Assembly (NCBI RefSeq): GCF_016734815.1
Contig: NZ_JAERQF010000001.1
Span: 248,001 to 312,000 of the forward strand
Reading direction: 5' to 3'
Source of the DNA: Hymenobacter rubidus
GTDB lineage: Bacteria; Bacteroidota; Bacteroidia; Cytophagales; Hymenobacteraceae
Length of the DNA stretch: 64,000 nt
Shown: positions 17,571 through 37,011 of the stretch, piece by piece
Layout of the letters: each line of letters begins with the position of its first letter
Numbering within the stretch: the stretch's first letter is position 1
Program-made: the position numbers and the translations under genes
Notes under the pieces: generated by a model
Seen by the model: the letters and a program-made list of their open reading frames with translations, nothing else
What the model was told of the DNA's origin: nothing
Databases searched by the model: none

Positions 17571-20500
17571 TTGATTTTGACACATTCTTCGCTGACATAC
17601 CGCTGGGCGGCGCTGCTGGTCTTCCTGATTGGGGTGGGCGTGGCGGGCTGCGCGTCGGATAAAAACCTGGTGGCCCACGCATTCAACAACGTGGCGGCCC
17701 GCGACAATGCCTATTTCCTGGCCCGCCAGAAATTGCAGCTCACCGAAGACAAGCTGTATGCAGCGCGAGCAAACGACTACAACCAGACCCTCCCGCTGTT
17801 CCCGACCTTGGACAGTGCCAGCGTGAAGGCCAATAGGGCCGACTTGAATGATATCATTAAGAAAGCCTCGATGCCGATTCAGAACCGGCCGGGTTCGGAC
17901 TGGACCGATGACGCCTACATCTTGGTGGGCTGGTCGCGCTTTTACCAGATGCAGTTCGATGACGCGGCGCTGACGTTTAAGTATGTGAACTCGACTAGTA
18001 AGGATGCCAACGCTAAGCACGAAGCCTTGATTGGCTTGATGCGGACGTTTGTGGCCAAGCAGGAGTACGAAAACGCCAAGGCGGTATCGGACCTGCTGGA
18101 TAAGGAATCGGGCTTGCCAGCCGATGCGCGCCAGCTGTTTCTGACTCGGGCCGATTACTACATCCGCACGGAGGAACCGGCTAAAGCCATTCCACAGTTG
18201 GAAAAGGCCATTCCGCTGATTGAATTCAAGAACGAACGGTCGCGGACGCGCTACATTCTGGCGCAGCTGTACCAGGATGCGGGCGAGAACAAGAAGGCCT
18301 ACGAGCAGCTCGACCAGATTCTGGCCCGCAACCCGCCGTATGAGCTGGACTTTCAGGCCAAGCTGATGCTGGCACAGGTGTCGGACCTGAGCGCGACGGA
18401 CCGGGCCCGGCTGGATAAGAACTTCGCGGGCCTATTGAAAGACCCCAAGAACAAGGACTACCGCGACAAGATTTACTACGAGATGGCGCGGCTGAACTAC
18501 CGCGAGCAGAAATACCCCGAGGCCCTGACGCTGCTGCGGCAGTCCATTAAAGCCACCACCACCAACCGGACGCAGAAAAGCTACACCTATTTGCTGGCGG
18601 GCCGTATCTATTACGAGAACCTGCAGAAGTACCGGCTGGCCGCCGCCTACTACGATAGCACGGTGCAGAGCTTGGCGCCGGATGCCAAGACCTACCTCGC
18701 CATCAAGGAGCGCAGCAACATTCTGCGCGATTTTGCCAAGCAGTACACCATTATCGAAACGCAGGACAGCTTGCAAGCGCTGGCCAAGCTCAGCCCCGAT
18801 GCCCTGAGCCAACAACTCAGCGCCTACGCCGATGCTGAGCTGGCGGCCAAAAAGAAGGCCGAAGCCCAGCAGGCCGCGCAGCAAAAAGCCAAAGCCGACG
18901 CGGCCGAGTTCAACTCCCGTACCACCAGCAGTGCCTCCACGACGCTACCCGGTGGTACTACACCCGACCCGTTGGCCTTCGACCCCACGGCTACGGCCAG
19001 TGGCGGCCAGTGGTATTTCGACAACCCGGCTACCCTGGGCACGGCCCGCGCCGACTTCCTGCGCAAGTGGCAGGACCGCCAACTCCAGGACAACTGGCGG
19101 ACGACCCGCCAGTCGAGCAGCTCGCCCAATGCAGCCGCAAACGGGGGCTCTCCGCTTTCCCTCACCGGTAATGGCGACACCCGCGTGAATGGCAGCCAGC
19201 CCGATTCAGCCGCCAAGGCTGCCGCGGCTAGTCCCGATGCTGCCAAAGGCGCTTTGGTCGCGCAGTACCGCAAAGCCATACCGCTCACGCCGGAGCAGCT
19301 GGCCGCCTCCGACAAGCAGGTAGAAGCCGCCCTGTACGAGTTGGGCGGCATTTACAAGGAGCAGCTGAAGGAGCGGGAAAAGGGCTTCGAAACATACGAG
19401 AAGCAAGTGGGCCGCTATGTGCGCGGCGAGCACGCGCCCGACGCCTACTACCTGCTGTATCTGTACTACAAGGACAAGCCCGATGCCACCAAAATGGCCC
19501 AATACGCGGCGGCCCTGCAGCGGGAGTTTCCAACCTCAATTTATGCCAAGCTGATTGCCGACCCGCTGTACCGCGAACACGAGCTGGCGCTGCACAACGC
19601 CGTGGCCAGCCGGGTCGATTCGGCTTTCACCTACTACAAAAACCAGGAGTTCCGCAAAGCGACGGCCGTGCTGGCCCGCACCGAGCAACAGTACCCCAAA
19701 AGCGACCTCAACGACCGGGTAGCTTACCTGAAAACGCTGCTGGTTATCCGCACCCAGCCGCCGCTCACGGCCCGCTCCTCGGTGGAAAAGTTCTACAAAG
19801 ACTACCCTGATAGCCCCCTGGTACCCATAGCCCAGGCGCTGGCCGAAACGTACAAAAAGCAGAGTGTGGGCCAGATAACCGGGGCCCTGGCTTCGACCGA
19901 AAAGCCGGTTGTGTCGGTGTTTAGGCCGGGCGAGGTAGACAACCGCATGCGCATCGTGTATGGCGAAAACGACAGCCCGGCGAAACCGTTGGTGCCCGTG
20001 GCACCGGCGCCCGCCCCGCAGGCCACATCCGTGGAAGCCCCCAAAGCCGGGAAAATTCAGAAGGATGAGGCCGCCGATAGGATAGCCGCCCCGGCTGGTT
20101 CGGCCGGCCCGGCTCCCCTAAGCAAGCCCACTTCAGCGGCACCAGCCCTCGCCCCTCCTGCGCCCGCAACCACCCCCCCCGGCGCGCCTGCCCCCACTCC
20201 CACGGCGGCCACCCCGCCCGCGCCCGCCGGTAGCCCGGCGCCGGCCACCGGGGCCAGTACGGTGTCGTCGGCTCCGGCCACAGCGTATGTCACGCAGATG
20301 AGCGGGGCCCACGCCGTGGTGCTGGTGTTTCCGAAGGGCTCGCCGGCGGCCACGGATTTGGCGCCGCAGCTGGGCACCTATAACAGCCGCTTCTTCAAAG
20401 CCAATAACCTGCAAGTGGAAACCCCGGCCTTGGGGGCCGACCAGGACCTATTTGTGGTGCGGGCGTTGCCGGGCGCCAAGGTGGCCCAGAGCTACGCCAC

Positions 20501-20648
20501 CAAGCTGCGCGGGCCGCAGTCGCCGCTGGCGCGCCTGCGCGGGGCCGGCTATCAAACCCTGGTCATCAGCCTCGAAAACCTGGCCTTGCTGCAAGCCAGC
20601 GGGGATTTGGCGGGATACCAGACGTTTTATCAGCGGGTGTATAAGTAG
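17571..20648 (+). CDS. porW: PorW/SprE-type TPR lipoprotein of the type IX secretion system
   Basis: A 1025-residue lipoprotein. The start is TTG 17571, since no ATG precedes the signal peptide, and the lipobox GVGVAGC puts the lipidated Cys at 27. The body has many TPR-like helix pairs (about 60-390 and 530-730) interrupted by a Gln/Ala-rich segment, then a Pro/Ala-rich linker (about 850-905) and a compact C-terminal domain. N-terminal blocks such as NNVAARDNAYFLA and DDAYILVGWSRFYQMQFDDA match the PorW/SprE family, which links the T9SS motor-ring complex to the outer-membrane translocon. The core genes are 11 kb away at 31-37 kb. Confidence 0.88.
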   Translation: MILTHSSLTYRWAALLVFLIGVGVAGCASDKNLVAHAFNNVAARDNAYFLARQKLQLTEDKLYAARANDYNQTLPLFPTLDSASVKANRADLNDIIKKASMPIQNRPGSDWTDDAYILVGWSRFYQMQFDDAALTFKYVNSTSKDANAKHEALIGLMRTFVAKQEYENAKAVSDLLDKESGLPADARQLFLTRADYYIRTEEPAKAIPQLEKAIPLIEFKNERSRTRYILAQLYQDAGENKKAYEQLDQILARNPPYELDFQAKLMLAQVSDLSATDRARLDKNFAGLLKDPKNKDYRDKIYYEMARLNYREQKYPEALTLLRQSIKATTTNRTQKSYTYLLAGRIYYENLQKYRLAAAYYDSTVQSLAPDAKTYLAIKERSNILRDFAKQYTIIETQDSLQALAKLSPDALSQQLSAYADAELAAKKKAEAQQAAQQKAKADAAEFNSRTTSSASTTLPGGTTPDPLAFDPTATASGGQWYFDNPATLGTARADFLRKWQDRQLQDNWRTTRQSSSSPNAAANGGSPLSLTGNGDTRVNGSQPDSAAKAAAASPDAAKGALVAQYRKAIPLTPEQLAASDKQVEAALYELGGIYKEQLKEREKGFETYEKQVGRYVRGEHAPDAYYLLYLYYKDKPDATKMAQYAAALQREFPTSIYAKLIADPLYREHELALHNAVASRVDSAFTYYKNQEFRKATAVLARTEQQYPKSDLNDRVAYLKTLLVIRTQPPLTARSSVEKFYKDYPDSPLVPIAQALAETYKKQSVGQITGALASTEKPVVSVFRPGEVDNRMRIVYGENDSPAKPLVPVAPAPAPQATSVEAPKAGKIQKDEAADRIAAPAGSAGPAPLSKPTSAAPALAPPAPATTPPGAPAPTPTAATPPAPAGSPAPATGASTVSSAPATAYVTQMSGAHAVVLVFPKGSPAATDLAPQLGTYNSRFFKANNLQVETPALGADQDLFVVRALPGAKVAQSYATKLRGPQSPLARLRGAGYQTLVISLENLALLQASGDLAGYQTFYQRVYK

Positions 20649-20849
20649 GCTTTGAGGCAGCGCCGCGACCTCCCCCCAACCATAAAAGCCCACGTGCTAC
20701 GATGCACGGCGGCTCTTTAATGTGTAACAGCCGACGTCCGACAAATGCTTGCATCTACTTCCCTGTGCGCTTCCGGCATAGCCACGAAAACGGATGGCCC
20801 CAGCCGCTGCCGACCGAAACCACCCGTGGGACGCCCTGCCGATGCGGGC

Positions 20850-23800
20850 CTACTTTTCGATGCGCAGCTGCTCGCGGCTCAGCACCTCCTTGCCGCGCAG
20901 GATGTGCACGAAGTAGAGCCCGGCCGGCAAGTTATCGGTGGCCAGGCGCACCGTGGCCGCGCCGGTGCTGGTTTGCTCGGCGCGGGGCTGGCCGTAGCTG
21001 TTGAACAGGCGCACGGTGACGGGCTGGGCGGCATCGGCATTTTCTATATGCACGTCGACTGACTCGGTGGCAGGATTGGGGTAGAGGGTGGTCATGGCCG
21101 GAGCCGGGCGGTTACCACATGGGCCAACTACGTAGCGGCTGGCGCTGGTCGAGCCGCAGCTATTAGTAGCTGTAATATTAATGCTACCCGTACCACCCGC
21201 CGCCGTGCTGCGCACGGTATACGTGCCGTCAGGCTGGACCCCGCCAATCAGTCTCAAGGAGCCAGTTACGCTGATAGCGTATGAGGCCAACGGGTCATAG
21301 TTGTCTATTTGGCATTCCACGGGTACGGACCCACAATCGTTCCCCCAATTCGGTCCTTGAGTAGCGGGGCTGGAGGGGGCTCCGACTCTAATACTTCTGC
21401 TAATGGTGCGGGGGCAGTCGCCGCCAATTTGCAGCGTAATAGTGCCGTCGCTAGTACTTACATTACTGGTGGTGAAGGCTAAGCCCGTACCAGTGGGATT
21501 AGTGAAGATGTTAGTGGGCGTTGCCGACCAAGTGTAGGTGTAGCCAGAGCCGCGGTCAGAAGTGGTGTAGGTGGTAGAGCCACACACAGTGGGTGGGCCA
21601 GCAAATGTGAGGTCAGCAGGGGTAAGGCACTCGCTGGTGCAGCCTATGCTGTTTGTATTGCTATTCACCGGCCGTTGCATTTCGTTGAAAATCCACTCGC
21701 CATTGCGAGCTGTGAAGCGCAGGTGTGGCTGATTAAATAGCGAACCTGCTCCATTCACATTTTCCTGAGCAATATAGCGCAACACCTTAGGCTGGCTATT
21801 GCCTCCGGGCGGGCTTGGGCTGTCTGATACACTGTTGTTATACTTGGCATATGCCGACCCTGTGGAAGCAACCGGCACGTCGAGTGCGCTGTATGTGGGC
21901 ACAAAGCACAGGTCGCCGTTGTAGAGACTGGTTTGGGAGTAAAAGCGCAGCACGAATGGCAGGTAGGTATTGCTTTGGTCCACGCATGGCAAGTTGTCGG
22001 CCGGGTTGGTGTTGCCCCCTGGCAGGGTTTCATATGGCAGCGTGTTAGGGGGCGAGTCGGCTGTTTCATTGAGGAAGTTGACGCTAATGGTCGGCAGGCA
22101 TATTCTACCGAATGGACCCAGGCCGATGCACAAATTGTACTGCATATACACCCGCAGCCGGCTCGTCAGCGCTGTTTGCCCATACGCCGGCAGTCCATAG
22201 GCTGCCCCTTCTGCTTTGACATTGAAGTCTCTCAGTGGATTGAGTGGACTGAGTGGCAGAAAGGGCCGCAGGAAATAATCGTTCTGAATACCGCTGATTT
22301 GAATTCCGGTCGGCGTGTTTTGGGGCCGGCCGCACTGCGAGCCGTCGCTCGTCGCTATAATTTCGTACGTAGCGCCCGGCACGTTGTCTATCATCGAGCG
22401 GTAGGGGCTGTTGGCCCCCTCCAAAAACGTATTGGCTTGCACACCACCCGTGCGCGGCGTAGTCGCGTTTAGGATGGAAAGCTGCTGCGAAGCGGGCTCA
22501 TCGAGGATGGTCACGGCCGCATCGGCTTCGTTGCTGAACTCGCGCAGCTTCCAGCCGAAAATGGCCGGAATGTCGAGTGCCCGCGTCAGTTGCTGGGTGC
22601 CCACCGGACTGTAGGCCCCGCGCTGGGGGCTGTCGTGCAGCACCAGCAGGCGCGTGTCGGGGTCGTTGCGGTTGCGGCCCGTGACGGGGTCCGGGTCGGC
22701 GGGCAGCTTGGTCATTTCGGCCAGGCCGTAACGGCTAATCAGCCCGCCCATGCTCTGGCCCATCACCACGTTGCGCTCCGCGCCCGGCGCACCGACCTTT
22801 TGCTCGTTTACCCACCTGACTACCTCTTCAAATATTAGCGCGTTGCGCCGGATGTCGTCAGTATTCTTCGCGAAGTCGATGTAGACGAGGTCGTATTGGC
22901 CCAAGTCATGGAGGGCGTCGTTGAAATTATAAGGACTGGGCTGCTGGGCAATCTTATCCAAAAAGGTTTCAATCGTATTGTTTCGATTGTCGCAAGGCAG
23001 CAGTTTTGGGGCTAAACGTTCCAGAATAGAAGCCAGGTTATACTGCTCCACGATGATAAATGGCTTCGTCAGGCGGGTGTGCCCCTGGCCGTAGCGAACC
23101 GACACAGTGGCCCCGTCGTGCGCGGCCGTGGGCGTAATCGGGTGGGTCATATCGTTGCTGGTTCCGTAGCGCGCCACGGACGTCTGGAGCACCTCCAGGT
23201 CGAAGTGGCTTTCCAGACTGAAGCTGCTGGGTTGGGCGGCTGCTGCGGTAGTCCCGGCGCGGGTGCTGGTGGAATTGAGCGGGCGCGGCACCTGGTATAC
23301 CAGCTTCACCCGCACATGCTTGTGGCCGGGAGTGCCGTAGGTAGTGGCCACGGGTTGGTTCCAATAGGCCCGCACATAGCCCCGGCCGTCGTCGAAGTCA
23401 AGGTAAAGCGCCGCCACCGTTGTGCCGGGGTTGTTGGTCAGGTACAGGTTGCGCGGAAACACAAACGACACACTGCCCGTGTACGATACCGGGTAGTAGG
23501 GCGCGGCGGCAAAAAGCGTGGCTGCCTCGTAGGGACTTTGGCTGCGGCCGGGCACGTCGTACACTTGGTCGTTCTGCACTTGCAGCAGGTTGTTATCCAA
23601 AGCGTCGGGTCGGATGCGGTGGTAGTTCATGTACTGCACTGCAATGGGATTGGGGGCGCCCGAGGCGCCCTGCCGCCAGGCCCCAAAGCGGCGGTTGAGT
23701 TCGGGCAGCGAAGGCAGCGTGTCGGTCCCCGTCACACGAGCCGAATAGATGGTGGCCCGCAGAAAGCAAAAAGCCGACAGGTCGAGGCTGTTGGAATCGG

Positions 23801-24008
23801 CCAATACGCCGTTGTAGGCACGCAGGCCGAGCAGGCGCTCGCCGTACTCATCGAGGTAGCCGCTGGGCACCTGCGTCTTGTCGAGCGGGGCGAAAATCTG
23901 GTCCAGCTGCTGGCGGGCCGCGTCCGGGGGAGCGGTCTGGGCCCAAACGCGGCTAAGGCCGGCAATGGAGAGTAGCACTGCGAGAAAAAAGCGTAGAAAA
24001 TGTTTCAT
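20850..24008 (-). CDS. T9SS-exported serine hydrolase (alpha/beta hydrolase fold)
   Basis: A 1052-residue protein. ATG 24008 gives a signal peptide (FLRFFLAVLLSIAG, cut near VWAQ). The region 300-560 looks like an alpha/beta hydrolase: DLVYIDFAKNTDD before the nucleophile elbow GQSMGGLISRYG (Ser419), as in lipases and PGAP1-like esterases. Downstream are Cys-containing Ig-like segments (about 830-960, with CGSTTYTTSDRGSGYTYTW and TNSCGSTSASRY) and a type A T9SS sorting domain (LYPNPATESVDV, then LPAGLYFVHI). It should act at or beyond the cell surface. It is the last gene of a five-gene operon, 20 bases after lipoprotein A. Substrate unknown; the acid and His of the triad were not assigned. 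Confidence 0.8.
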   Translation of the reverse strand: MKHFLRFFLAVLLSIAGLSRVWAQTAPPDAARQQLDQIFAPLDKTQVPSGYLDEYGERLLGLRAYNGVLADSNSLDLSAFCFLRATIYSARVTGTDTLPSLPELNRRFGAWRQGASGAPNPIAVQYMNYHRIRPDALDNNLLQVQNDQVYDVPGRSQSPYEAATLFAAAPYYPVSYTGSVSFVFPRNLYLTNNPGTTVAALYLDFDDGRGYVRAYWNQPVATTYGTPGHKHVRVKLVYQVPRPLNSTSTRAGTTAAAAQPSSFSLESHFDLEVLQTSVARYGTSNDMTHPITPTAAHDGATVSVRYGQGHTRLTKPFIIVEQYNLASILERLAPKLLPCDNRNNTIETFLDKIAQQPSPYNFNDALHDLGQYDLVYIDFAKNTDDIRRNALIFEEVVRWVNEQKVGAPGAERNVVMGQSMGGLISRYGLAEMTKLPADPDPVTGRNRNDPDTRLLVLHDSPQRGAYSPVGTQQLTRALDIPAIFGWKLREFSNEADAAVTILDEPASQQLSILNATTPRTGGVQANTFLEGANSPYRSMIDNVPGATYEIIATSDGSQCGRPQNTPTGIQISGIQNDYFLRPFLPLSPLNPLRDFNVKAEGAAYGLPAYGQTALTSRLRVYMQYNLCIGLGPFGRICLPTISVNFLNETADSPPNTLPYETLPGGNTNPADNLPCVDQSNTYLPFVLRFYSQTSLYNGDLCFVPTYSALDVPVASTGSAYAKYNNSVSDSPSPPGGNSQPKVLRYIAQENVNGAGSLFNQPHLRFTARNGEWIFNEMQRPVNSNTNSIGCTSECLTPADLTFAGPPTVCGSTTYTTSDRGSGYTYTWSATPTNIFTNPTGTGLAFTTSNVSTSDGTITLQIGGDCPRTISRSIRVGAPSSPATQGPNWGNDCGSVPVECQIDNYDPLASYAISVTGSLRLIGGVQPDGTYTVRSTAAGGTGSINITATNSCGSTSASRYVVGPCGNRPAPAMTTLYPNPATESVDVHIENADAAQPVTVRLFNSYGQPRAEQTSTGAATVRLATDNLPAGLYFVHILRGKEVLSREQLRIEK

Positions 24009-24017
24009 GGAGTTGGC

Positions 24018-24109
24018 TAAGGAAAGGGTTAGAGTTTTTTGTCGAAGCGGCCTTGCGTGAACTTGAGCGTGTCGCAACCGGGCTTGGCCAGCGTGAACTC
24101 AAACGTGCC
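24018..24109. repeat. Array repeat, 3' block of lipoprotein A
   Basis: From GGGTTAGAG to GCCCGCGAT this block is essentially identical to 24562-24653 and differs by one base from 25116-25207. It encodes the C-terminal 27 or so residues plus the gene junction. Confidence 0.85.
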
Positions 24110-24556
24110 CGCGATAATGCCTGCCTTTAGGTCCAATTGGGTTATTATAAGTTCACCTGCTCGGTAATGAGGGTCCCCGGCAAAAAACGAGCAGGGGTTG
24201 CCGTACCCAATGGAATATGTAGCCTCTTGGTGTTTAGGAAAGGTCAAGGCATATTTACCAACTTTTCTCAGACTATCTGAAAATATGGCAACTGTCTCAA
24301 TAACGGAGCTGGTTTTACTCGGTTTTGTTAAACTAATGTTGATTGTTCCATATCGATAACCGGGGTCGTAGTACACACTAAAATGGTCCTTACCGAAAGG
24401 AACCCACGCCTGACCATTGAGCAGGCAACCGACGGTGTTGGCCCCGGTCTGGGTAGCGGGCGGCAGTTGGTCCACAGGGTCCGGGTCTTTCTTTTTGCAT
24501 TGGCTCAGGCCCAGCAGGGCGGCCAGCAGCAGGGTAGCAAGGGGTAGGTTGTGCAT
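24029..24556 (-). CDS. Small lipoprotein, array member A
   Basis: A 175-residue lipoprotein starting at ATG 24556; the frame extends upstream only because the repeated DNA is open. Lipobox GLSQC places Cys19, followed by KKKDPDP, a Lys-then-acid run like the surface-export signal of Bacteroidota lipoproteins. Then come the conserved DQLPPATQTGANTVGCLLNG and a Trp-containing motif (AWVPFG), resembling DUF6252-type proteins, a divergent centre, and the conserved tail GTFEFTLAKPGCDTL with KFTQGRFDKKL. Its two ends are nearly identical to neighbour B while the middle differs and is AT-rich. Function unknown. Confidence 0.75.
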   Translation of the reverse strand: MHNLPLATLLLAALLGLSQCKKKDPDPVDQLPPATQTGANTVGCLLNGQAWVPFGKDHFSVYYDPGYRYGTINISLTKPSKTSSVIETVAIFSDSLRKVGKYALTFPKHQEATYSIGYGNPCSFFAGDPHYRAGELIITQLDLKAGIIAGTFEFTLAKPGCDTLKFTQGRFDKKL

Positions 24557-24653
24557 GATGAAGAGGGTTAGAGTTTTTTGTCGAAGCGGCCTTGCGTGAA
24601 CTTGAGCGTGTCGCAACCGGGCTTGGCCAGCGTGAACTCAAACGTGCCCGCGA
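24422..24653. repeat. Array direct repeat 1 (start of A, junction, end of B)
   Basis: About 230 bases that reappear at 24976-25207 with only a few differences, offset by 554 bases. The block spans the 5' part of one lipoprotein gene, the 11-base junction and the 3' part of the next, and so brackets each variable centre. Confidence 0.85.
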
Positions 24654-25110
24654 TGATGCGGGCTTGCATGTCCAGCCGGGTAATCGTCAACGTGCCCCGG
24701 CAGTACGTACCGACTTCTCGGCTTTCATACACGCATCTTCTCGTCGGGTCATTGAATAACACTCTCGTGCGGTTTAAGTCCGTTAATAAGTACACCCCCG
24801 TTTGCGGAAGTGGATTGACGTATATGGAAAGAGTCTGAGGACTTGGCAACGTGTTATTACCTAAATCTTTTTCCACGCTCAGGTTGAACAGTCCACCGGT
24901 ATAACCCGTGTCGTAGTCGATGAAGAAATTTTTGGACGTGCCATTCCCCACCGGCGCCCACAGCTGCCCGTTAAGCAGGCAGCCGACGGTGTTGGCCCCG
25001 GTCTGGGTAGCGGGCGGCAGTTGGTCCACAGGGTCCGGGTCTTTCTTCGTGCACTGGCTCAGGCCCAGCAGGGCGGCCAGCAGTAGGGTGGTAAGGGGTA
25101 GGTTGTGCAT
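24568..25110 (-). CDS. Small lipoprotein, array member B
   Basis: A 180-residue paralogue of A. ATG 25110 gives MHNLPLTTLLLAALLGLSQC with Cys20 lipidated, then TKKDPDP. The same DQLPPATQ and NTVGCLLNG block and the same C-terminal block (FTLAKPGCDTLKF, GRFDKKL) enclose a centre unlike that of A, with a Cys pair region (RRCVYES, TYCRG). It lies 11 bases after C and 11 bases before A. Direct DNA repeats of about 230 bases link its ends to those of the neighbours. Confidence 0.75.
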   Translation of the reverse strand: MHNLPLTTLLLAALLGLSQCTKKDPDPVDQLPPATQTGANTVGCLLNGQLWAPVGNGTSKNFFIDYDTGYTGGLFNLSVEKDLGNNTLPSPQTLSIYVNPLPQTGVYLLTDLNRTRVLFNDPTRRCVYESREVGTYCRGTLTITRLDMQARIIAGTFEFTLAKPGCDTLKFTQGRFDKKL

Positions 25111-25207
25111 GATGAAGAGGGTTAGAGTTTTTTGTCGAAGCGGCCTTGCGTGAACTTGAGCGTGTCGCAGCCGGGCTTGGCCAGCGTGAACTCAAACGTG
25201 CCCGCGA
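24976..25207. repeat. Array direct repeat 2 (start of B, junction, end of C)
   Basis: Partner of the block at 24422-24653. Unequal crossing-over between the two would delete or duplicate exactly one gene unit and keep all frames intact. Confidence 0.85.
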
Positions 25208-25673
25208 TGATGTGTGCTTTTGTATCCAAGAGGGTAATAATTAACTGCCCTCTGCAATACACGCCAGAATCTCTGCTATTGTAATAACAGCCTGTTTGCG
25301 GATTATTAAAGGTGACATTTGTGACAGAAGAATTACTTAAATCATATGTCCCAGCACTTTGAAAAGGATTAAGAAACAGCACTATGTACTGGTCTCCGTT
25401 TGAGCCACCATTATATTTATAAGCGCGTAGGTCAAATACTCCGTTGCTAAGAGTCGGGTCATAATTAACTTGAAAGCTTTGGGACGTGCCGTTGCCCACG
25501 GGTGCCCAGGGCTGGCCGTTGAGCAAGCAGCCGACGGTGTTGGCTCCGGTCTGGGTGGCGGGCGGGAGCTGGTCGATGGGCGCCGGGTCGTCTTTCTTGC
25601 ACTTGCTACACTGCGTGAGCAGCAGCAGCCCCAGATACACGGGAAGCTTGCGGAACGGGAAGGCAGAAGGCAT
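25122..25673 (-). CDS. Small lipoprotein, array member C
   Basis: A 183-residue paralogue starting at ATG 25673. Its signal peptide (FRKLPVYLGLLLLTQC) differs from A and B, with the lipidated Cys followed by SKCKKDDP. It shares the QLPPATQTGANTVGCLLNG block and a C-terminal 90-base DNA block almost identical to A and B. The centre (YNGGSNGDQYIVLFLNPFQS) contains a GCYYNSRDSGVYCRG segment resembling the Cys segment of B. The DNA of the centre is visibly AT-richer than the ends. Confidence 0.75.
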   Translation of the reverse strand: MPSAFPFRKLPVYLGLLLLTQCSKCKKDDPAPIDQLPPATQTGANTVGCLLNGQPWAPVGNGTSQSFQVNYDPTLSNGVFDLRAYKYNGGSNGDQYIVLFLNPFQSAGTYDLSNSSVTNVTFNNPQTGCYYNSRDSGVYCRGQLIITLLDTKAHIIAGTFEFTLAKPGCDTLKFTQGRFDKKL

Positions 25674-25680
25674 GGAAAGG

Positions 25681-26217
25681 CTACAGTTTTCGGTCGAAGC
25701 GGCCGTTGGTCACACGGATGCTGTCGCAGCCGGGTTTGTAGAGCGTGAACCAGAACGTGCCTGACACGATGCCGGCCCGCCGGTCTAGCCGCGTGATAGT
25801 AAATCCACCTTTGCCGTAGGTTCCAACATCTACTGTATAATACTGACAGCCGTTGGCTCTGTTAACAAAGCCTGCCTGATGGCGTCCTCCTTTTTTGAGG
25901 AAGTAACTACCGGTTGTTTGGATACTATCGGACCCGAAGCCTATCGTTTGTTGGTCTGCTCCGTTTCCGGACAACCGATAGGCGGCCACATTGAGTGTGC
26001 CAAAGTGGTAGACCGGGTCGTATGACACAGAATAATTAGAAAATCCGTCATTTCCTCGCGGTGTCCAGGCCTGCCCGTTGACAAGGCAGCCAAACGTATT
26101 CTCCCCGCTCTGGGTGGCGGGCGGAAGCTGGTCGGCCGGGTCGGCGCCGTTATTCTTGCACTGGCTCAGGTCCAGCAGGGCGGCCAGCAACAGCGCATGG
26201 AGTACGAGTTTGTTCAT
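25681..26217 (-). CDS. Small lipoprotein, array member D (first in operon)
   Basis: A 178-residue member starting at ATG 26217; the frame continues to 26391 without support. MNKLVLHALLLAALLDLSQC gives lipidated Cys20, then KNNGADP. It keeps the plan of A-C (QLPPATQSGENTFGCLVNG, AWTPRG, a GCQYYTVDVGTYGKGG segment, FWFTLYKPGCDSIRV, GRFDRKL) but is the most divergent in DNA sequence, so it may reflect the ancestral copy that escaped homogenisation. Only 7 bases separate it from C. Related to DUF6252-like Bacteroidota lipoproteins by eye. Confidence 0.75.
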   Translation of the reverse strand: MNKLVLHALLLAALLDLSQCKNNGADPADQLPPATQSGENTFGCLVNGQAWTPRGNDGFSNYSVSYDPVYHFGTLNVAAYRLSGNGADQQTIGFGSDSIQTTGSYFLKKGGRHQAGFVNRANGCQYYTVDVGTYGKGGFTITRLDRRAGIVSGTFWFTLYKPGCDSIRVTNGRFDRKL

Positions 26218-26473
26218 GGCCGGGAAGGGGAGCAAAAGTTGCCTTGATACGCTGGCAGCTGGCGTTGCCCTAAATGTCGGCGCTATCCGCTCCCATCTCA
26301 ACACGAAAGTTGGGCAAATCCGACTTTTGAAATCGAAGCCCAAGCGCCCGGCAGCCAGCAGAAAGCCACCGCCGGGCCGCGCAATGCCCAATCAGCGGGC
26401 GGCAGCAAAGGACATTAGGCCATTAGGCACCGGCTATTTGCGTACGCAGCCGGCCCGCCAACGCTGCCCGCGT

Positions 26474-26481
26474 TATTTTTG
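26474..26481 (+). promoter_or_regulatory. -7 box of the penicillin-binding protein gene
   Basis: TATTTTTG matches TAnnTTTG, 26 bases before the ATG at 26508. No -33 TTG at the usual distance was seen. Confidence 0.35.
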
Positions 26482-26507
26482 CTACCGTATTCCCGTCTTT
26501 GCTTCCT

Positions 26508-31036: not shown

Positions 31037-32017
31037 CTAGAAGCTCCACAGGTTGTATTCGTACTCTACCAAATCAGCGGCAGTTTGCTGCGCAGCTAAG
31101 ATGCCCTGACGGCCATCACCATAGATATCATCTAGGCGAGAGTCGCTGGCATTCGATACTTTGGTGATGTAGGAGTTGAATAGCCACAACTCAAATGCAT
31201 CAGCCAGGTTCTTGTGCTGCGCATCATTCTCTGCATTAAACCAGATGGCATTTTGCGGATTGTTGCGGAACACCTTCACCAAATCACTGTACTTAAACGT
31301 ACCAATTTGTTTTTCAATGCCTGATGTATTCGAAGACAACGTCGACGGCACAAAGAAGGAAATGGATTTAATGTCGTGGTACATTCTCGACCGCTTTTTG
31401 TCGAAAATCATATCCTCCTTTAGCTCCATCGCATACAGGTCTTTGTAGCGATACAAGTTCAACGGTGCAGGCGGCGGGGGCGGCGGGGCAACAGTTACGG
31501 TTTCGTAAATAATTTGGCCCCTTCTGTTTTTCAACGGTTTGCCATTTGCTCCCAGTTTGGGTTTGCGAACAGTGTTAGCGGCTGCAGCTCTGCCACCTCC
31601 AGCTGCAGGCCTAGCCCCCCAATCATCACCACCGCCAGCGTTATTCTCGCTAAAGCCTGCTGCTTTTTCCTCGTCGCTCAGCTTCTCGGTCTCGTCAGCA
31701 ATCGACATGTTGCCAGTAACCTCAGCGGGAGTGAAAGTAGAAGTCAGCGAATCATTCTTATAAGCTTGCAATTCTCCCCGCTTTACGGCTTCAAAAATTA
31801 CTCGGCTGATTTCTTTGCCTTCTGAGAACATCGGCTTGTTCTGCTTCTCGCGCAAGTCTACCTGACGCCAGATGCTCTTGCGAAACATTTGGTCAGACGG
31901 CGGAATAGGACGATGCGAGCCAGTGCTACTCGCCGTTGTTGCCTGCTCTTGAGCTGAAGCCGTCAGCCCTAGGGTCAAGCCCGCCGCAAGCGCGGCTAAG
32001 GTGTGCATAGATTTCAT
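31037..32017 (-). CDS. gldN: T9SS/gliding motility protein GldN (PorN)
   Basis: A 326-residue periplasmic protein with signal peptide (LAALAAGLTLGLTASAQ). Family blocks: SIWRQVDLREKQNKPMF near residue 50, then EGKEISRVIFEAVKRGELQAY, then YRYKDLYAMELKEDMIFDK and the FNAENDAQHKNL region. A Gly/Ala-rich and Pro-rich linker (about 120-185) is inserted. GldN forms the periplasmic ring with lipoprotein GldK at the outer membrane. It is the last gene of porP-gldKLMN, 57 bases after gldM. Confidence 0.93.
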   Translation of the reverse strand: MKSMHTLAALAAGLTLGLTASAQEQATTASSTGSHRPIPPSDQMFRKSIWRQVDLREKQNKPMFSEGKEISRVIFEAVKRGELQAYKNDSLTSTFTPAEVTGNMSIADETEKLSDEEKAAGFSENNAGGGDDWGARPAAGGGRAAAANTVRKPKLGANGKPLKNRRGQIIYETVTVAPPPPPPAPLNLYRYKDLYAMELKEDMIFDKKRSRMYHDIKSISFFVPSTLSSNTSGIEKQIGTFKYSDLVKVFRNNPQNAIWFNAENDAQHKNLADAFELWLFNSYITKVSNASDSRLDDIYGDGRQGILAAQQTAADLVEYEYNLWSF

Positions 32018-32074
32018 AATGGCAAAAGCAGATTTAATGTATGATAGTTCGCTAACGTAACATCTGTAATATTA

Positions 32075-33685
32075 TTACAGCAGCGGAATATTAAACTGTT
32101 TGGATACGTTGACCGGCTCTACATCGCCTTTGAAATTTTGGCGTTGCACTTCTTTGACTTCAATGTATAGACGGTCACCTTCGCGGTAAGCATTCACGAC
32201 GTCGCTCAGGTCAGCCGTTGGGCCGCTAATTGGTTTGGTAGGAATGGCGGGGCGACGGCCACGCACCAGCGTTACCTCATAACGCGACACCCGGAATTTG
32301 GCATCATCAGGGAGGAAGGTAGCAAAACCAGCATCTGGAACAGCGCGCAGATTTAGCGAACGCACAGCAGTACCAGGAGTGCCTTGCTTTTCGTTGGCTT
32401 GTCTACCGCCCACCCAGCATTCAATGGTGGGCTTGGGGATAGGCCGCACCTGAAAGGTCTGTGAGCCGATAGCATTACCGCCGCTGCTCACATTCAACGT
32501 TACTTCTTTAGAGTTCGGAACCAAGGTCACTTCACCCAACTTACCGCCTTGGATAACCGAAGCACCCGAAGCCGAGAAGCCCGGCTTGTACTGAGCGCCA
32601 AGAGCCGGCACGTTTACCGTGAGCTTGTTGCCACACTTGAAATACAAGGCTTGCACCGAAGCCGACTGAATTTGCATTACCGGCTTCGTAACAGTGTAAG
32701 GCACCGTTACTTTGAACGTGGTATCGCGACCACTGTTGTTGATGCGAATGGTGCCAGTCCAGGATGCTTTTGCATTGCCAGATGCATCAAAGTTACCCGG
32801 ACGAGCAGTAAATTCTACTTTGCCATGGCCATCAGGACCAACAGAAAGTGGGCTCCCGTTTAGTGACATCTTCTGCTGAAGACCAGTAGCCGAAGCTGTT
32901 AGAAACAGCTCTGCTTTGTATTTAGTGCCAGCTGCTACCGTATTCGACTCAGCGCTCGCAAAAGCACCGATTTTGTCGAAGGAGATGACTTCAGCACCTA
33001 CTTTCTTAGCTTGGGCCGAAAGAGCATCGGCTTCCAGTTTCAGAACGGCCGTTTCTTTTTGCGACAGCACTGCCAGTGCAGCTACCAGCGGCGTATTCTC
33101 GAAGTTCAGTTCAGCGAAATCCTTGTTGCGCTGCTCTACGGTTGTATGCTCCTTGGACTTGAAAATACGCTCATCTTCTTTGCCGTCGAGTGCCAGCGGA
33201 GTCGCATCCGGCACATAGGTTTTAATGAAGGTCGAGTAGTTGTTCAGTTCCGCCTTTAGGGGATAAGCCAGACCATTTTTCTTACCACCGAGCATTATCG
33301 GCATCACCTTGTTATTAGCATCCGGGTCTTTGAAATCTTGGAAGCCTTGGGTGACTGTAGTGTTGCCTGTGCCTGCAATAAGCTTGCTCCGAACGTCCTG
33401 CAAATAGGCAATCATGGCCTTTGTTTTCGCACGAATCTCTTCGCTTTGCTTCAACACGGTCACATCCTTTGCCAGGTTGTGGTTTTTTTCTACAGCCGCC
33501 TGAATGCCTTTTACACTATTTTCAGCAGCAAGATTTGTTTTACCATTGACATCAATCAAGCTGTCGTCGATGAATTTGAACTTCAGCAGAATCGCTGAGT
33601 TCACTTGAAGCGCCAGAAGAGCCGTTAGCACGAGGTACATCATGCCAATCATCTTCTGCCGCGGGGTTTCTTTTCCGCCTGCCAT
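32075..33685 (-). CDS. gldM: T9SS motor protein GldM (PorM)
   Basis: A 536-residue inner-membrane protein with a single N-terminal helix (about 12-32) and a long periplasmic part of four domains reaching the GldKN ring. The start MAGGKETPRQKMIGMMYLV keeps Arg9, the residue that pairs with the GldL glutamate in the proton-driven motor. The segment ALLALQVNSAILLKF follows. It is 56 bases downstream of gldL. Confidence 0.95.
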   Translation of the reverse strand: MAGGKETPRQKMIGMMYLVLTALLALQVNSAILLKFKFIDDSLIDVNGKTNLAAENSVKGIQAAVEKNHNLAKDVTVLKQSEEIRAKTKAMIAYLQDVRSKLIAGTGNTTVTQGFQDFKDPDANNKVMPIMLGGKKNGLAYPLKAELNNYSTFIKTYVPDATPLALDGKEDERIFKSKEHTTVEQRNKDFAELNFENTPLVAALAVLSQKETAVLKLEADALSAQAKKVGAEVISFDKIGAFASAESNTVAAGTKYKAELFLTASATGLQQKMSLNGSPLSVGPDGHGKVEFTARPGNFDASGNAKASWTGTIRINNSGRDTTFKVTVPYTVTKPVMQIQSASVQALYFKCGNKLTVNVPALGAQYKPGFSASGASVIQGGKLGEVTLVPNSKEVTLNVSSGGNAIGSQTFQVRPIPKPTIECWVGGRQANEKQGTPGTAVRSLNLRAVPDAGFATFLPDDAKFRVSRYEVTLVRGRRPAIPTKPISGPTADLSDVVNAYREGDRLYIEVKEVQRQNFKGDVEPVNVSKQFNIPLL

Positions 33686-33741
33686 TATCTGTTTCCTCTA
33701 AAATTGGATGAAGAACTAACTGAGTGCACTAAGCCTGCCAA

Positions 33742-34551
33742 TTAGGCTTGAGCGGGAGCGCGCATGGCGTTCAGCATGTTGCCGTACACCCGATTCAAGG
33801 AGGTCAGGTTGCTGGTCAGGTCAGATACTTGCTTCTGGAAGCTCTCCGTGTCTTTGCCAGCCTGGGTCATGTTCTCCATGGCCTTGCTCAGCGTACCGTA
33901 GAACTGGTTCATGGACTTGAGGTGCGTGTTGGCATCTTGGAGTTCCATTTCGTACACGGCATTTAGTGCGCCCAGGTTCTTGGTCACGTTCTGTACCTGC
34001 ATGTGGTATTCTTTAGCATCCGAGGTTGCATTCGACATGGCCGAAATAGCTTCCACCGTGTTGCCGTAAGCAACGTTGATTTTGTCGAGCGAATCGGCAG
34101 CCGAACGCACTTTTTTGGTGTATTCATCAGTCACGTTAGCGGCTTCACCCAACTGCGACATCTGCGAAGTAGTGGTGCTGAGACGGTTCAGGCCTTGGCC
34201 GAGGCTGGTGAGAGCTTCCGGCGTTACGTTGGCATTCTTCAGCATATCGTCCAGCTTCATCGTCAAGCCTTTTGCATTGTTGGCTTCAACAGCTTTGGTA
34301 CCACCCGTCGAAGGGTCATAGCCGTCGTTCAGTTCCGGGTACACCAAACCCCAATCGGGCTCATGAGCAGCAGGCTGGAACGCGCTCAGGAAGAAGATAA
34401 CTGCTTCCGTCCCAAGACCCACAATCAGCATTTGGTCAGCACCTGACCAGTGTTCAATCTTAAACAATGCACCAATGATTACAACGGCTGCGCCGATGCC
34501 ATAAATTTTGGGCATCAGCGTATCATATAGAAAACTTCCTTTAGCTGCCAT
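33742..34551 (-). CDS. gldL: T9SS motor protein GldL (PorL)
   Basis: A 269-residue protein with two N-terminal transmembrane helices (about 15-33 and 42-58) and a cytoplasmic coiled-coil tail. Glu49 in LGTEAVIFFLSAFQP is the membrane glutamate known in this family to be needed for use of the proton gradient. GxGAAVVIIGALFKIEHW is the other conserved block. GldL5-GldM2 form the rotary motor that powers T9SS. Confidence 0.96.
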   Translation of the reverse strand: MAAKGSFLYDTLMPKIYGIGAAVVIIGALFKIEHWSGADQMLIVGLGTEAVIFFLSAFQPAAHEPDWGLVYPELNDGYDPSTGGTKAVEANNAKGLTMKLDDMLKNANVTPEALTSLGQGLNRLSTTTSQMSQLGEAANVTDEYTKKVRSAADSLDKINVAYGNTVEAISAMSNATSDAKEYHMQVQNVTKNLGALNAVYEMELQDANTHLKSMNQFYGTLSKAMENMTQAGKDTESFQKQVSDLTSNLTSLNRVYGNMLNAMRAPAQA

Positions 34552-34612
34552 GATATTTTATCTGTTGAAAGGGGTTGAAAGAAGGTGTTGAGAGAGGGTG
34601 TTTGAAGGAAAA

Positions 34613-35632
34613 TTAATTAAGAGAGCTGTTCGTGCCCATGCCGATTTGAATCATTGAGCAGCGGAAACCGATATAAGAGCGAGCCGAGTCCTGGTATTCG
34701 AAATTGCGGGTACCGGTTTCGAGGAAGTAGGCAATGTCCTTCCAGGAACCGCCACGTACCACTTTGCGGGGCTCGTTGTCGTCAGGGTTGGTGGGGTTCA
34801 GGTCCCACACCACCGGCACGGAAGCCTCCATATAAGCGTCATCGCACCATTCCGACACGTTGCCGGCCATATCGTACAGGCCAAAATCGTTGGGGAAGAA
34901 GGAGCCAACTTCGGAAGTATAAGCGAAACCGTCTGATGCATAGTCGCCACGGCCGGGCTTAAAGTTAGCCAGCATGCAGCCTTTGCTATTGCGGAGGTAA
35001 GGACCACCCCAAGGGTACGTAGCCAGGTCGCGGCCACCGCGGGCGGCGTATTCCCATTCAGCCTCCGAAGGCAAGCGGAAGTTGGGGTCGGCAGCGGCAC
35101 CGGTTTCTTCGCGGGCAGCGTTGCGGAACTTGGTGCGCCAGTTGCAGAAGTATTTGGCAGCAAACCAGTCAACCCCTACTACCGGATAATCATCGAACGC
35201 CGGGTGAGTGTAGTAATATTCCAACAGCGGGTCACCCATGTGATAGGTGAAGTCGCGCACCCAAACCGTGGTATCGGGGTAAAGTTCCGTCATCACGTAC
35301 TCTTCGCCCAGCACATCCAGCGAGTCTTGCTTGATAGCATCCACAAACTGGCGGTATTCGTTGTTGGTAATCTCGGTTTCGTCCATGTAGAAGCCGGCAA
35401 TAGTTACCTGCTTGTTCATGTTGACCATGGACGCGGAAATGTCCTGGTCAGTCTGGCCCATATGAAAGGTGCCACCGGGGCACGGCACCATACCAAAAGG
35501 TACTTCCTGCGGATTGAAGAAGGGACGGTCATCAGCGCCAACCAAGTCCCCCGTGGGGCCTTTGCCCATTCCGCACCCGCCTAATAATGCCCCGGAAATA
35601 GCGAAAAGTGATAATGCTAGAAGCTTGTTCAT
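34613..35632 (-). CDS. gldK: T9SS lipoprotein GldK (PorK)
   Basis: A 339-residue lipoprotein. ATG 35632 gives MNKLLALSLFAISGALLGGC with Cys20 lipidated; the frame runs on to 35722 but crosses the promoter. The body is a formylglycine-generating-enzyme/sulfatase-modifying fold (PGGTFHMGQTDQD, EITNNEYRQF, FRLPSEAEWEYAARGG, DMAGNVSEWCDDAY, VVRGGSW), used structurally here. It builds the outer-membrane-associated ring with GldN. A consensus promoter lies 60-90 bases upstream. Confidence 0.95.
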   Translation of the reverse strand: MNKLLALSLFAISGALLGGCGMGKGPTGDLVGADDRPFFNPQEVPFGMVPCPGGTFHMGQTDQDISASMVNMNKQVTIAGFYMDETEITNNEYRQFVDAIKQDSLDVLGEEYVMTELYPDTTVWVRDFTYHMGDPLLEYYYTHPAFDDYPVVGVDWFAAKYFCNWRTKFRNAAREETGAAADPNFRLPSEAEWEYAARGGRDLATYPWGGPYLRNSKGCMLANFKPGRGDYASDGFAYTSEVGSFFPNDFGLYDMAGNVSEWCDDAYMEASVPVVWDLNPTNPDDNEPRKVVRGGSWKDIAYFLETGTRNFEYQDSARSYIGFRCSMIQIGMGTNSSLN

Positions 35633-35691
35633 GAGAGTTAAAAATTCTGATTTAATTGCCAATACCGCTAAAGTACATTTGGATGGTCTGG

Positions 35692-35722
35692 CAAATCTAC
35701 ACTTTTTTAGGACGCTGTGCAA
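35692..35722 (-). promoter_or_regulatory. Promoter of gldKLMN
   Basis: On the minus strand: TTG, exactly 20 bases, then TAGATTTG, a full match to the Bacteroidota -33/-7 consensus. Expected transcript start is near 35685, giving a leader of about 53 bases before gldK. Confidence 0.65.
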
Positions 35723-35881
35723 TACCCTACTATTTCAGCACAAGCCTAAATACGGGGCAAACAAGCTGAATAGGGCAAAAAACTCGGTTAATCCGCTTTT
35801 TTGCCAATACGACTGACTAAAATTTATCCTAATAGAATAGGACAATGCCAGTCTCGAGGGCGGGATAGTTAAATAGGAAAA

Positions 35882-36898
35882 TTAGAAGCTGTAGCGCGGC
35901 GTCCGAATAGCCGGACGGAAGTTAGTTACTTTGGGCATGCGGTAAGAGAGCATGATTTCGTGCGAGCTGAAGGCCCGGGCATCCTGGTTAAAGGCAATGA
36001 AATCAAATGCGTAACTTAAACGCACGGCATTGTCCTTTGCAAAGCTTAAGCCAACTAAGCCTGATATAGATTCTTCGTTACGGTAATTTGCGCCAATCCA
36101 GTACTTGTCATCGATAGTAGCGCGAACACCGCCTTCAAATGAGTAGTTCTTGCTGTTATCAAATTTACTTGAACTGGAAAAGTTGCCCGGTAATACAGAT
36201 TTCACTAAAACCATTGGTGTGACGACAACGGACGAAGAGGCGTCAATATTGTATCCAGCGGTAAAGTACGCATGGTTTTCGGCAATGTAATTTGTCGGGT
36301 TGCCGTCTTTCTTGCCGGTGTTGGGGTTCACAGTGCCAGAGCTCTGGAACGTGTATTCCGAGCGTAGCAAGTTGTTTATACTGATGCCTGCGTAGAATTT
36401 GGGTGCTTCGTACCAGATGCCCGCGCCCGCGTCAAACTTGCTGTCCGAAGCGCCGCTTGGCACGTTTACGTCATACTCATCAATGGCAATGTAGGTGCCT
36501 TTGCTCAGGTAAGTATAAATACCTTGGATACCAAAGCCCAGCTTACCTGAGCCCAATTTAACGTGCTGGGAATACGAAAGCGCGGTATTCGTCATTTTCG
36601 ACTGCCCCACTTGGTCGTAGTACACAACCAAGCCCACGCCGCCATTGAGGGCGAGAACGGGCATGGAAACAGTAATCATTCCCGTGCGGGGCGAACCGTT
36701 GGCGTCGCCGAATGTACCGTAGTTAAAATACTGGTAACGACCAACAAGGTTTACTTCTCCCTGCCCTTTGATGCCGGCATATGCCGGATTCAGCGACATT
36801 CCATTAAGACCGTAATGGGTAAACTGGGGCTGCTGCTGAGCAAGCGCCGAGCCAGCCGCGGCCGTGAGCAGCAGGGTCGCAAGTAACGTTCCTTTCAT
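35882..36898 (-). CDS. porP: T9SS outer-membrane protein, PorP/SprF family
   Basis: A 338-residue beta-barrel protein with a signal peptide (LLATLLLTAAAGSALAQ). The opening of the mature part, QPQFTHYGLNGMSLNPAYAG, is the hallmark of PorP/SprF; later strands and a final aromatic residue fit the family. It precedes gldK as in the porPKLMN operon of Porphyromonas, so it is likely the true PorP rather than one of the many SprF-like paralogues. A 249-base gap to gldK carries a separate promoter. Confidence 0.92.
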   Translation of the reverse strand: MKGTLLATLLLTAAAGSALAQQQPQFTHYGLNGMSLNPAYAGIKGQGEVNLVGRYQYFNYGTFGDANGSPRTGMITVSMPVLALNGGVGLVVYYDQVGQSKMTNTALSYSQHVKLGSGKLGFGIQGIYTYLSKGTYIAIDEYDVNVPSGASDSKFDAGAGIWYEAPKFYAGISINNLLRSEYTFQSSGTVNPNTGKKDGNPTNYIAENHAYFTAGYNIDASSSVVVTPMVLVKSVLPGNFSSSSKFDNSKNYSFEGGVRATIDDKYWIGANYRNEESISGLVGLSFAKDNAVRLSYAFDFIAFNQDARAFSSHEIMLSYRMPKVTNFRPAIRTPRYSF

Positions 36899-36969
36899 AG
36901 AGGCGTGGTGGTGATTGGTGGTGAAAGAAGAGGAGGGTGGGGGATAGTCGCTACTAGATGAATAGCTTC

Positions 36970-36977
36970 CAAATGTA
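36970..36977 (-). promoter_or_regulatory. -7 box of porP
   Basis: TACATTTG, a perfect match, 71 bases before the porP ATG. A TTG lies 16 bases further upstream, shorter than the usual spacing. Confidence 0.4.
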
Positions 36978-37011
36978 AGGCAAAAACTTTCTCCAAAAAA
37001 TTCGGACAAAA

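What the first reader, a model, noticed from the sequence alone, without database searches (positions are those of the whole stretch)
24018..26217. Lipoprotein cassette array: near-identical gene ends, divergent AT-rich centres
Four paralogues in tandem. A, B and C share almost identical 3' DNA (about 90 bases, one mismatch) and A and B share identical 5' parts, so about 230-base direct repeats at 24422 and 24976 bracket each centre. The centres differ strongly and look much richer in A+T than the ends. Such a layout allows frame-preserving recombination to lose, gain or swap centres, as in surface antigen diversification. The Lys/Asp run after the lipid Cys suggests surface display.
Basis: partly seen in the sequence, partly recalled or inferred. 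Interest (0 to 1): 0.75.

Follow-up and report, generated by a model that had tools for sequence, protein, structure and literature searches.

The report
Lipoprotein cassette array beside secreted lipase
A Hymenobacter genome carries four tandem surface-lipoprotein genes with near-identical ends and very different middles, upstream of a secreted lipase-like protein; the same pair recurs across Bacteroidota and looks like a weapon with a shuffled set of protective partners, though no function has been tested.

Summary
Four DUF6252/NF052634 lipoprotein genes (A-D, minus strand) carry conserved ends, near-identical in A, B and C at 3', around saturated, A+T-richer centres. Lipoprotein and LIP genes recur as a unit across Bacteroidota, lipoprotein upstream. 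Some arrays hold remnants of lost LIP genes, part of them from another LIP lineage than the resident one. In 29 of 29 relatives examined at this spot the flanking genes are 86-245 nt apart, so array plus LIP look like a ~5.8-kb insertion. Other genomes show the predicted recombination: centres often resemble genes elsewhere while ends resemble neighbours, syntenic arrays differ in copy number, and one array is a mosaic. A+T-rich centres are family-wide, not array-specific. Best reading (confidence 0.5): effector-immunity arrays like those of the Vibrio T6SS, but T9SS-linked and with centres swapped through shared ends. Main rival: a required LIP partner, because mutants of the namesake gene Riean_0653 lost most hemolysis and the gene alone restored it. 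Surface-antigen variation is less likely.

The parts
24029..24556 (-). Lipoprotein gene A (175 aa), nearest to LIP
   Evidence: PF19765 29.6 bits (cut-off 27.2); NF052634 157.7 bits (cut-off 57)
24568..25110 (-). Lipoprotein gene B (180 aa)
   Evidence: PF19765 23.2 bits, below cut-off; NF052634 157.6 bits; AlphaFold2 model mean pLDDT 90.5, beta-rich
25122..25673 (-). Lipoprotein gene C (183 aa)
   Evidence: PF19765 35.9 bits; NF052634 169.8 bits
25681..26217 (-). Lipoprotein gene D (178 aa), first of the run; centre 73% identical (aa) to an orphan gene of G071 and 65% to the LIP-adjacent gene of G090
   Evidence: PF19765 29.0 bits; NF052634 167.8 bits; nearest centres
24420..24658 (.). Direct repeat copy 1: 3' end of B, 11-nt spacer, 5' part of A
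   Evidence: 239 nt, 8 mismatches against copy 2
24974..25212 (.). Direct repeat copy 2: 3' end of C, 11-nt spacer, 5' part of B
20850..24008 (-). LIP: 1,052-aa secreted alpha/beta-hydrolase-like protein with GQSMG motif and T9SS type A C-terminal domain; starts 20 nt after A
   Evidence: TIGR04183 36.1 bits (cut-off 23); PF18962 36.6 bits; PGAP1-like in 14 of 16 family members, the window's own not among them at E 0.01; motif read in the ORF
20649..26498 (.). Inferred inserted segment between the TPR-like gene (17571-20648, +) and the PBP gene (from 26499, +)
   Evidence: In 29 of 29 other Hymenobacter loci examined these genes lie 86-245 nt apart with no LIP or family gene found between; 5,860 nt here

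Best explanation
A-D are surface or outer-membrane lipoproteins that pair with LIP, a lipase-like enzyme exported by the type IX secretion system; most likely they are immunity proteins that protect the producer and kin from LIP and from LIP variants of competitors. Shown by sequence: recurrent lipoprotein-LIP units, LIP remnants inside arrays, lipoprotein genes intact beside broken LIP genes, and recombination through conserved ends that duplicates, deletes and swaps centres. Inferred: that LIP is an active lipase, that it acts on other bacteria, that the centre sets which LIP is recognised, and that orphan copies are kept as protection. In this genome the unit appears inserted between two conserved genes and has one intact LIP and four lipoprotein variants, probably on one transcript (spacers of 7, 11, 11 and 20 nt).
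For: Linkage: in a LIP-first search of 120 Hymenobacter genomes 18 have LIP at E 1e-30; of 19 main LIP loci 14 have a family gene within 1 kb upstream on the same strand. Of 246 Flavobacteriales genomes 18 have the family (E 1e-15) and 22 LIP-like genes (E 1e-30); 10 have both against 1.6 expected, Fisher p = 1e-7, and in 8 of the 10 they are adjacent. Over the fetched loci 54 of 59 LIP 5' ends (remnants included) have a same-strand family gene ending within 1 kb upstream, none has one only downstream, 5 have none (many loci were chosen for holding the family gene). Remnants: 18 LIP pieces in 13 loci lie upstream of a further family gene. In L203 the remnant is 64-80% identical to LIPs of L219, L214 and L229 but 36-41% to the resident LIP; one remnant of L197 (91%) and that of L217 (88%) match the resident LIP. 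Retention: 11 of 19 Hymenobacter LIP genes are broken, and the nearest upstream family gene is intact in 8 of the 9 of these that have one (my reading). Constraint: pooled pN/pS 0.16 in centres of the seven closest of 12 pairs computed. Centre distances follow LIP distances (r 0.85, 30 pairs; ends 0.51 and 0.71). Parallels in print: outer-membrane lipoprotein immunity to alpha/beta-hydrolase effectors (PMC9860674, passages); immunity arrays with a partial effector gene (PMC5361080, passages and section 13).
Against: Riean_0653, namesake of NF052634, is needed for hemolysis: transposon mutants lost most of it, the gene alone restored it almost completely, and the recombinant protein was not hemolytic (PMC7881567, passages). 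That fits a required partner better than immunity, whose loss should harm the cell; its neighbour gene was not identified here. The centre-LIP correlation is confounded by phylogeny: in 7 of 11 arrays, the window included, a farther copy correlates better than the adjacent one. Three intact LIP loci (L095, L101, L113) and a truncated one (L108) have no full-length family gene directly upstream; G042 has a distant LIP and no family member found. Codon identity is higher in the ends than in the centre also between different Hymenobacter loci (0.56 and 0.54 against 0.39; within arrays 0.78 and 0.75 against 0.52), so part of that signal is codon bias. Toxicity, lipase activity and binding are untested, and no control rate of gene breakage was measured.
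Confidence: 0.5

Rival explanations
1. Required partner: the lipoproteins fold, export, anchor or activate LIP on the cell surface (as lipase foldases do for other lipases, recalled), and different centres fit different LIP variants.
For: Riean_0653 needed for hemolysis and complemented by the gene alone (passages). Recurrent upstream linkage on one strand. Centre distances follow LIP distances. A 2.04-Mb single-contig genome has three family genes directly before a LIP gene with an open frame of 1,014 aa.
Against: A partner should be lost with its client, but 107 of 120 Hymenobacter genomes have the broad family (E 1e-3) against 18 with LIP (E 1e-30); 73 of 124 fetched loci with the family have no LIP within 1.5 kb (not a random sample); and intact copies stand beside broken LIP genes.
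Confidence: 0.27
2. Surface-antigen or ligand-binding diversification: small barrel lipoproteins vary their exposed part to escape phage, predators or host defences, and LIP is an incidental neighbour.
For: Barrel-like model; best VIA-align match mycobacterial LpqH, Z 8.4, 3.0 A, 105 aligned, with OprF barrel, YceI, NHBA, TbpB and fHbp domains lower. K/D-rich start after the Cys. Centre swapping.
Against: Recurrent LIP linkage and LIP remnants in arrays are unexplained. The four copies are complete genes, not silent cassettes. A Z of about 8 can mean only a common arrangement (note).
Confidence: 0.13
3. Ordinary tandem duplication: ends are conserved for folding and export and homogenised by gene conversion, and centres drift without specific purpose.
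For: End motifs are conserved at protein level across the phylum. Codon identity exceeds the centre in the N block in 45 of 49 neighbouring pairs but in the C block only in 27 of 49, and ends exceed centres between unlinked loci too. Some arrays clearly arose by duplication. Between diverged copies centres change fast (for example dN 0.24, dS 0.50).
Against: Close centres are under purifying selection. 57 of 94 array members have a centre nearer to a gene elsewhere than to any array neighbour. Nearly identical genes in genomes with diverged flanks point to transfer.
Confidence: 0.1

Closest known systems
T6SS immunity-gene arrays of Vibrio cholerae (PMC5361080; passages and section 13 read)
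   Same: One current effector with several intact immunity-type genes, a partial old effector gene inside an array, displaced alleles resembling those of other strains.
   Different: There the authors argue against duplication; here both duplication and displacement are seen, and single genes look like mosaics switched near conserved ends. The enzyme carries a T9SS sorting domain; the lipoprotein gene is upstream of the enzyme gene and the remnants are mostly its 5' parts. Immunity is unproven here.
Tle/Tli phospholipase effector and lipoprotein immunity pairs (PMC9860674, passages read; TplE and PGAP1 only as search terms and listing)
   Same: Alpha/beta-hydrolase enzyme paired with a small outer-membrane lipoprotein of beta structure.
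   Different: LIP has a T9SS sorting domain. T6SS genes were not searched for in this genome, and no sequence relation to Tle or Tli was tested.
TANFOR polymorphic toxins of Bacteroidetes (PMC7073777, outline and section 9 read)
   Same: Bacteroidota; proposed T9SS link; toxin with adjacent immunity gene.
   Different: Those have an N-terminal TANFOR domain; none was reported for LIP.
NCBIfam NF052634 (Riean_0653 family) and Pfam PF19765 (DUF6252)
   Same: A-D belong to NF052634 by curated cut-off.
   Different: The models name no function. No paper held the term DUF6252; the one holding Riean_0653 did not mention a neighbour in the passages seen.

Membership tests
NF052634 Riean_0653 family / PF19765 DUF6252 | Score above the curated cut-off | tested here: met
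   NF052634: 4 of 4 at 157.6-169.8 bits against 57. PF19765: 3 of 4 above 27.2; B at 23.2 is below.
T9SS type A cargo (LIP) | C-terminal sorting domain TIGR04183 / PF18962 | tested here: met
   36.1 bits against 23; 36.6 against 27. gldN, gldM, gldL, a gldK-like gene and porP/sprF lie at 31040-37009.
PGAP1/LCAT-like alpha/beta hydrolases (LIP) | Domain match with nucleophile motif | tested here: inconclusive
   The window's LIP has no PGAP1 match at E 0.01 and only Esterase at 0.13, but 14 of 16 family members match PGAP1. Ser419 in GQSMG is invariant in the 16 aligned. The model is poor, pLDDT 57.
Effector-immunity array | Several immunity-type genes beside one effector gene, with effector remnants in related arrays | tested here: met
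   Arrays and remnants. The window's own array has no remnant detected.
Effector-immunity array | Effector is toxic and the partner neutralises it | not testable with these tools
   Needs bench work.
T6SS Tle/Tli pair | Effector delivered by a T6SS | tested here: inconclusive
   LIP carries a T9SS sorting domain, which speaks against it; T6SS genes were not searched for.
TANFOR polymorphic toxins | N-terminal TANFOR domain | tested here: inconclusive
   Not reported; whether these libraries hold a TANFOR model was not checked.
Antigenic-variation cassette system with silent copies | One expressed locus plus silent partial cassettes | tested here: not met
   All four array copies are full-length genes with ATG, signal peptide and lipobox-like Cys; expression was not tested.
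Bacteroidota surface lipoprotein | Lipoprotein export signal of type C-x-K-(D/E)2 near the Cys | tested here: inconclusive
   Loose pattern found in 33 of 148; in the window only C matches it; A and B have CKKKDPD and CTKKDPD.

The most novel reading that the evidence does not exclude
A phylum-wide T9SS effector-immunity system in which lipase toxins are paired with surface lipoprotein immunity genes, and new immunity specificities are made by swapping gene centres through conserved ends, giving mosaic immunity arrays.
Probability: 0.4. Interest if true: 0.78.

Novelty: new variant of a known kind. Interest (0 to 1): 0.64.

Why it matters
Whether the type IX secretion system serves in fights between bacteria was left as an open question in PMC7073777 (section 9 read). 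This unit offers a concrete, testable enzyme-protector candidate found in many Bacteroidota, gives an uncharacterised family (no paper in the library held the term DUF6252) a likely role, and shows a natural way to make new protein specificities by exchanging gene centres between conserved ends.

Tried and rejected
Foldseek of the lipoprotein model gave no PDB match at E 0.001 or better. VIA-align matches of about Z 8 show only a small barrel-like arrangement. The LIP model was too poor to place its fold; its listed Foldseek matches are mostly to immunoglobulin/fibronectin-like domains with TM-scores of at most 0.32 and were disregarded. PDB sequence searches gave nothing useful for the lipoproteins. 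For LIP they gave only sorting-domain or other accessory-domain stretches; one of these chains is named 'Lipase' but matches outside the hydrolase part of the profile.

Foreign origin of the A+T-rich centres was considered and not kept: single-copy Hymenobacter members show the same (39 of 40). Distance correlation was tried as proof of specificity and is not proof: in 7 of 11 arrays a farther copy does better than the adjacent one. C-block codon identity does not exceed the centre over all arrays (27 of 49), and C blocks are nearest to their own locus in only 44 of 94, so recent homogenisation of 3' ends is not general; it is clear in the window. Promoter and terminator patterns gave nothing conclusive. 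Papers were searched; no listed title describes this unit, but most listed papers were seen as listings only, and searches listed part of their hits.

Genes far from full length were left out of pair and array counts. One search's 30 pairs include LIP frames that lack a 5' part (at least 780 model positions was the rule). may list only part of their matches; one search says so.
Full report
Check of the observation. The window holds four intact tandem genes on the minus strand, A 24029-24556, B 24568-25110, C 25122-25673, D 25681-26217, separated by 11, 11 and 7 nt. The 3' ends of A, B and C match for 87-92 nt with one mismatch; the junction repeat is 239 nt with 8 mismatches (24420-24658 against 24974-25212). 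Centres are saturated at synonymous and replacement sites. GC is 0.42-0.50 in centres and 0.56-0.68 in ends. D shares only the protein-level pattern.

Identity. All four pass NCBIfam NF052634 (Riean_0653 family; 158-170 bits, cut-off 57); three of four pass Pfam DUF6252. In an alignment of 82 members the signal peptide is followed by a Cys, often a K/D-rich stretch, a conserved block around DQLPPATQTGANTFGC, a variable centre and a conserved C-terminal block around GTF.F and GRFD. An AlphaFold2 model of B has mean pLDDT 90.5 and is a small barrel-like beta protein. The genus is Hymenobacter: contigs of same-genus genomes match named Hymenobacter records by length (for example 72,875 bp H. glacialis and 4,709,305 bp H. 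siberiensis).

The missing neighbour. Twenty nt after A, on the same strand, starts a 1,052-aa protein (20850-24008) with a T9SS type A sorting domain, a GQSMG motif, and PGAP1-like matches in 14 of 16 relatives; I call it LIP. The window's own LIP has no PGAP1 match at E 0.01. T9SS core genes lie about 5 kb from the array.

The pair is a unit. A LIP-first search of 120 Hymenobacter genomes found LIP in 18 at E 1e-30; 14 of 19 main LIP loci have a family gene within 1 kb upstream on the same strand, on differing contigs and places. Exceptions: G006, G005, G042, one of two loci of G104, and G097, whose contig ends at the LIP start. In 246 Flavobacteriales genomes 18 have the family (E 1e-15), 22 have LIP-like genes (E 1e-30, some of them longer frames of about 1,600 aa), 10 have both, 8 of these adjacent (Fisher p 1e-7). 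Named genomes with the pair include Flavobacterium, Winogradskyella, Psychroflexus, Aquimarina and Ferruginibacter records.

The unit looks like an insertion here. Loci were fetched for the 30 best PBP matches of 120 genomes; in all 29 other than the window's own, the TPR-like gene and the PBP gene are 86-245 nt apart with no LIP or family gene found between; in the window they are 5,860 nt apart. No other LIP was found in this genome at E 1e-30; three further family genes above the NF052634 cut-off lie elsewhere in it without LIP nearby.

How arrays form. Of 119 loci with a full-length family gene 35 hold two to six (loci not randomly chosen). Eighteen pieces of LIP, mostly its 5' end, lie upstream of a further family gene in 13 loci. 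Some are duplicates of the resident LIP (one remnant in L197 91%, L217 88%); in L203 the remnant is 64-80% identical to LIPs of L219, L214 and L229 but 36-41% to the resident LIP; L102, L098 and L104 point the same way, on shorter pieces. So both duplication and displacement by another lineage's cassette are likely. Against a simple whole-cassette transfer in L203, the family gene just before that remnant has a centre 88% identical to that of L237, whose LIP is only 38-42% identical to the remnant.

Recombination through the ends. Between neighbouring copies (49 pairs, duplicates dropped) mean amino-acid identity is 0.86 in the N block, 0.43 in the centre and 0.71 in the C block; codon identity at identical residues is higher in the N block than in the centre in 45 of 49, but higher in the C block in only 27 of 49. 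The same excess of the ends exists between unlinked Hymenobacter loci, at a lower level (pooled 0.56 and 0.54 against 0.39; within Hymenobacter arrays 0.78 and 0.75 against 0.52), so codon bias explains part of it. Of 94 array members from 35 loci, 29 have ends nearest to their own array and a centre nearest to a gene elsewhere, 7 the reverse, 58 neither (p 3e-4, members not independent). Between L207 and L220 (two Bizionia species, flanks 88-90% identical) one array has five genes and the other three. Between L203 and L209 the flanks are 78-82% identical, yet L209 carries two genes that match the third and the sixth full-length genes of L203: identity to the third jumps to 100% close to the gene start, and identity to the sixth rises to 100% within the gene; L209 keeps only about the first 35 codons of LIP. 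L209 ends at a contig end of a metagenome assembly, so an assembly fault cannot be excluded. In G083 a LIP-adjacent gene on a 141,380-bp replicon has a centre 97% identical to one in a chromosomal array; the replicon matches plasmid NZ_CP053909.1 of Hymenobacter sp. BRD128 by length.

Selection. In the seven closest of 12 pairs computed, pooled pN/pS is 0.07 (N block), 0.16 (centre) and 0.03 (C block), so existing centres are under constraint; between more diverged copies the centres differ at many replacement sites. Eleven of 19 Hymenobacter LIP genes are broken by stops, frame changes or deletions, while the nearest upstream family gene is intact in 8 of the 9 of these that have one (my reading). 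Some breaks may be sequencing errors, and no control rate was measured.

Function. The pattern of one enzyme, many intact lipoprotein variants, remnants of other enzymes and many orphans is that of effector-immunity arrays, described for the T6SS of Vibrio cholerae (PMC5361080, passages and section 13); lipoprotein immunity to alpha/beta-hydrolase effectors is described for Tle1/Tli1 and Tle3/Tli3 (PMC9860674, passages). The strongest contrary fact is that Riean_0653 is needed for hemolysis and complements alone (PMC7881567, passages), which fits a required LIP partner. Distances between centres follow LIP distances (r 0.85, 30 pairs), but in 7 of 11 arrays a copy farther from LIP does better than the adjacent one, so this does not settle specificity. 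I give immunity 0.5, partner 0.27, surface diversification 0.13, undirected duplication 0.1.

Novelty. Each element has a known parallel; the combination of a T9SS lipase-like protein, a lipoprotein array and centre swapping inside single genes was not found in the papers searched (mostly search listings). It is a new variant of a known kind, of interest because it makes the question of T9SS in bacterial competition testable.

Noticed in passing
window 31040-37009, minus strand: T9SS core cluster: GldN, GldM, GldL, a GldK-like FGE-sulfatase domain protein and PorP/SprF, about 5 kb from the array that sits beside a T9SS cargo gene.
   Followed up: partly
L114 6775-7272, L115 6428-6877, L116 6087-6653: Three further family genes in the same genome on other contigs, without LIP nearby.
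   Followed up: partly
L111 9059-9565 and L112 8499-9005: A replicon of the length of plasmid NZ_CP053909.1 (Hymenobacter sp. BRD128) carries a family gene plus LIP; its centre is 97% identical to one copy in a chromosomal array of the same genome.
   Followed up: partly
L320, L322, L323, L327 (whole loci): Longer LIP-like open frames (1,629-1,690 aa) in four genomes of one Flavobacteriales family where the lipoprotein family was not found at E 1e-15; possibly a sister enzyme family with another partner.
   Followed up: no
L250-L252 (genome G282): A genome with 15 family matches, several paired in double-length open frames, suggesting fused two-domain members.
   Followed up: no
window 24029-26217 and Hymenobacter relatives: Centres have much lower GC3 than ends even in single-copy genes; cause unexplained.
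   Followed up: partly
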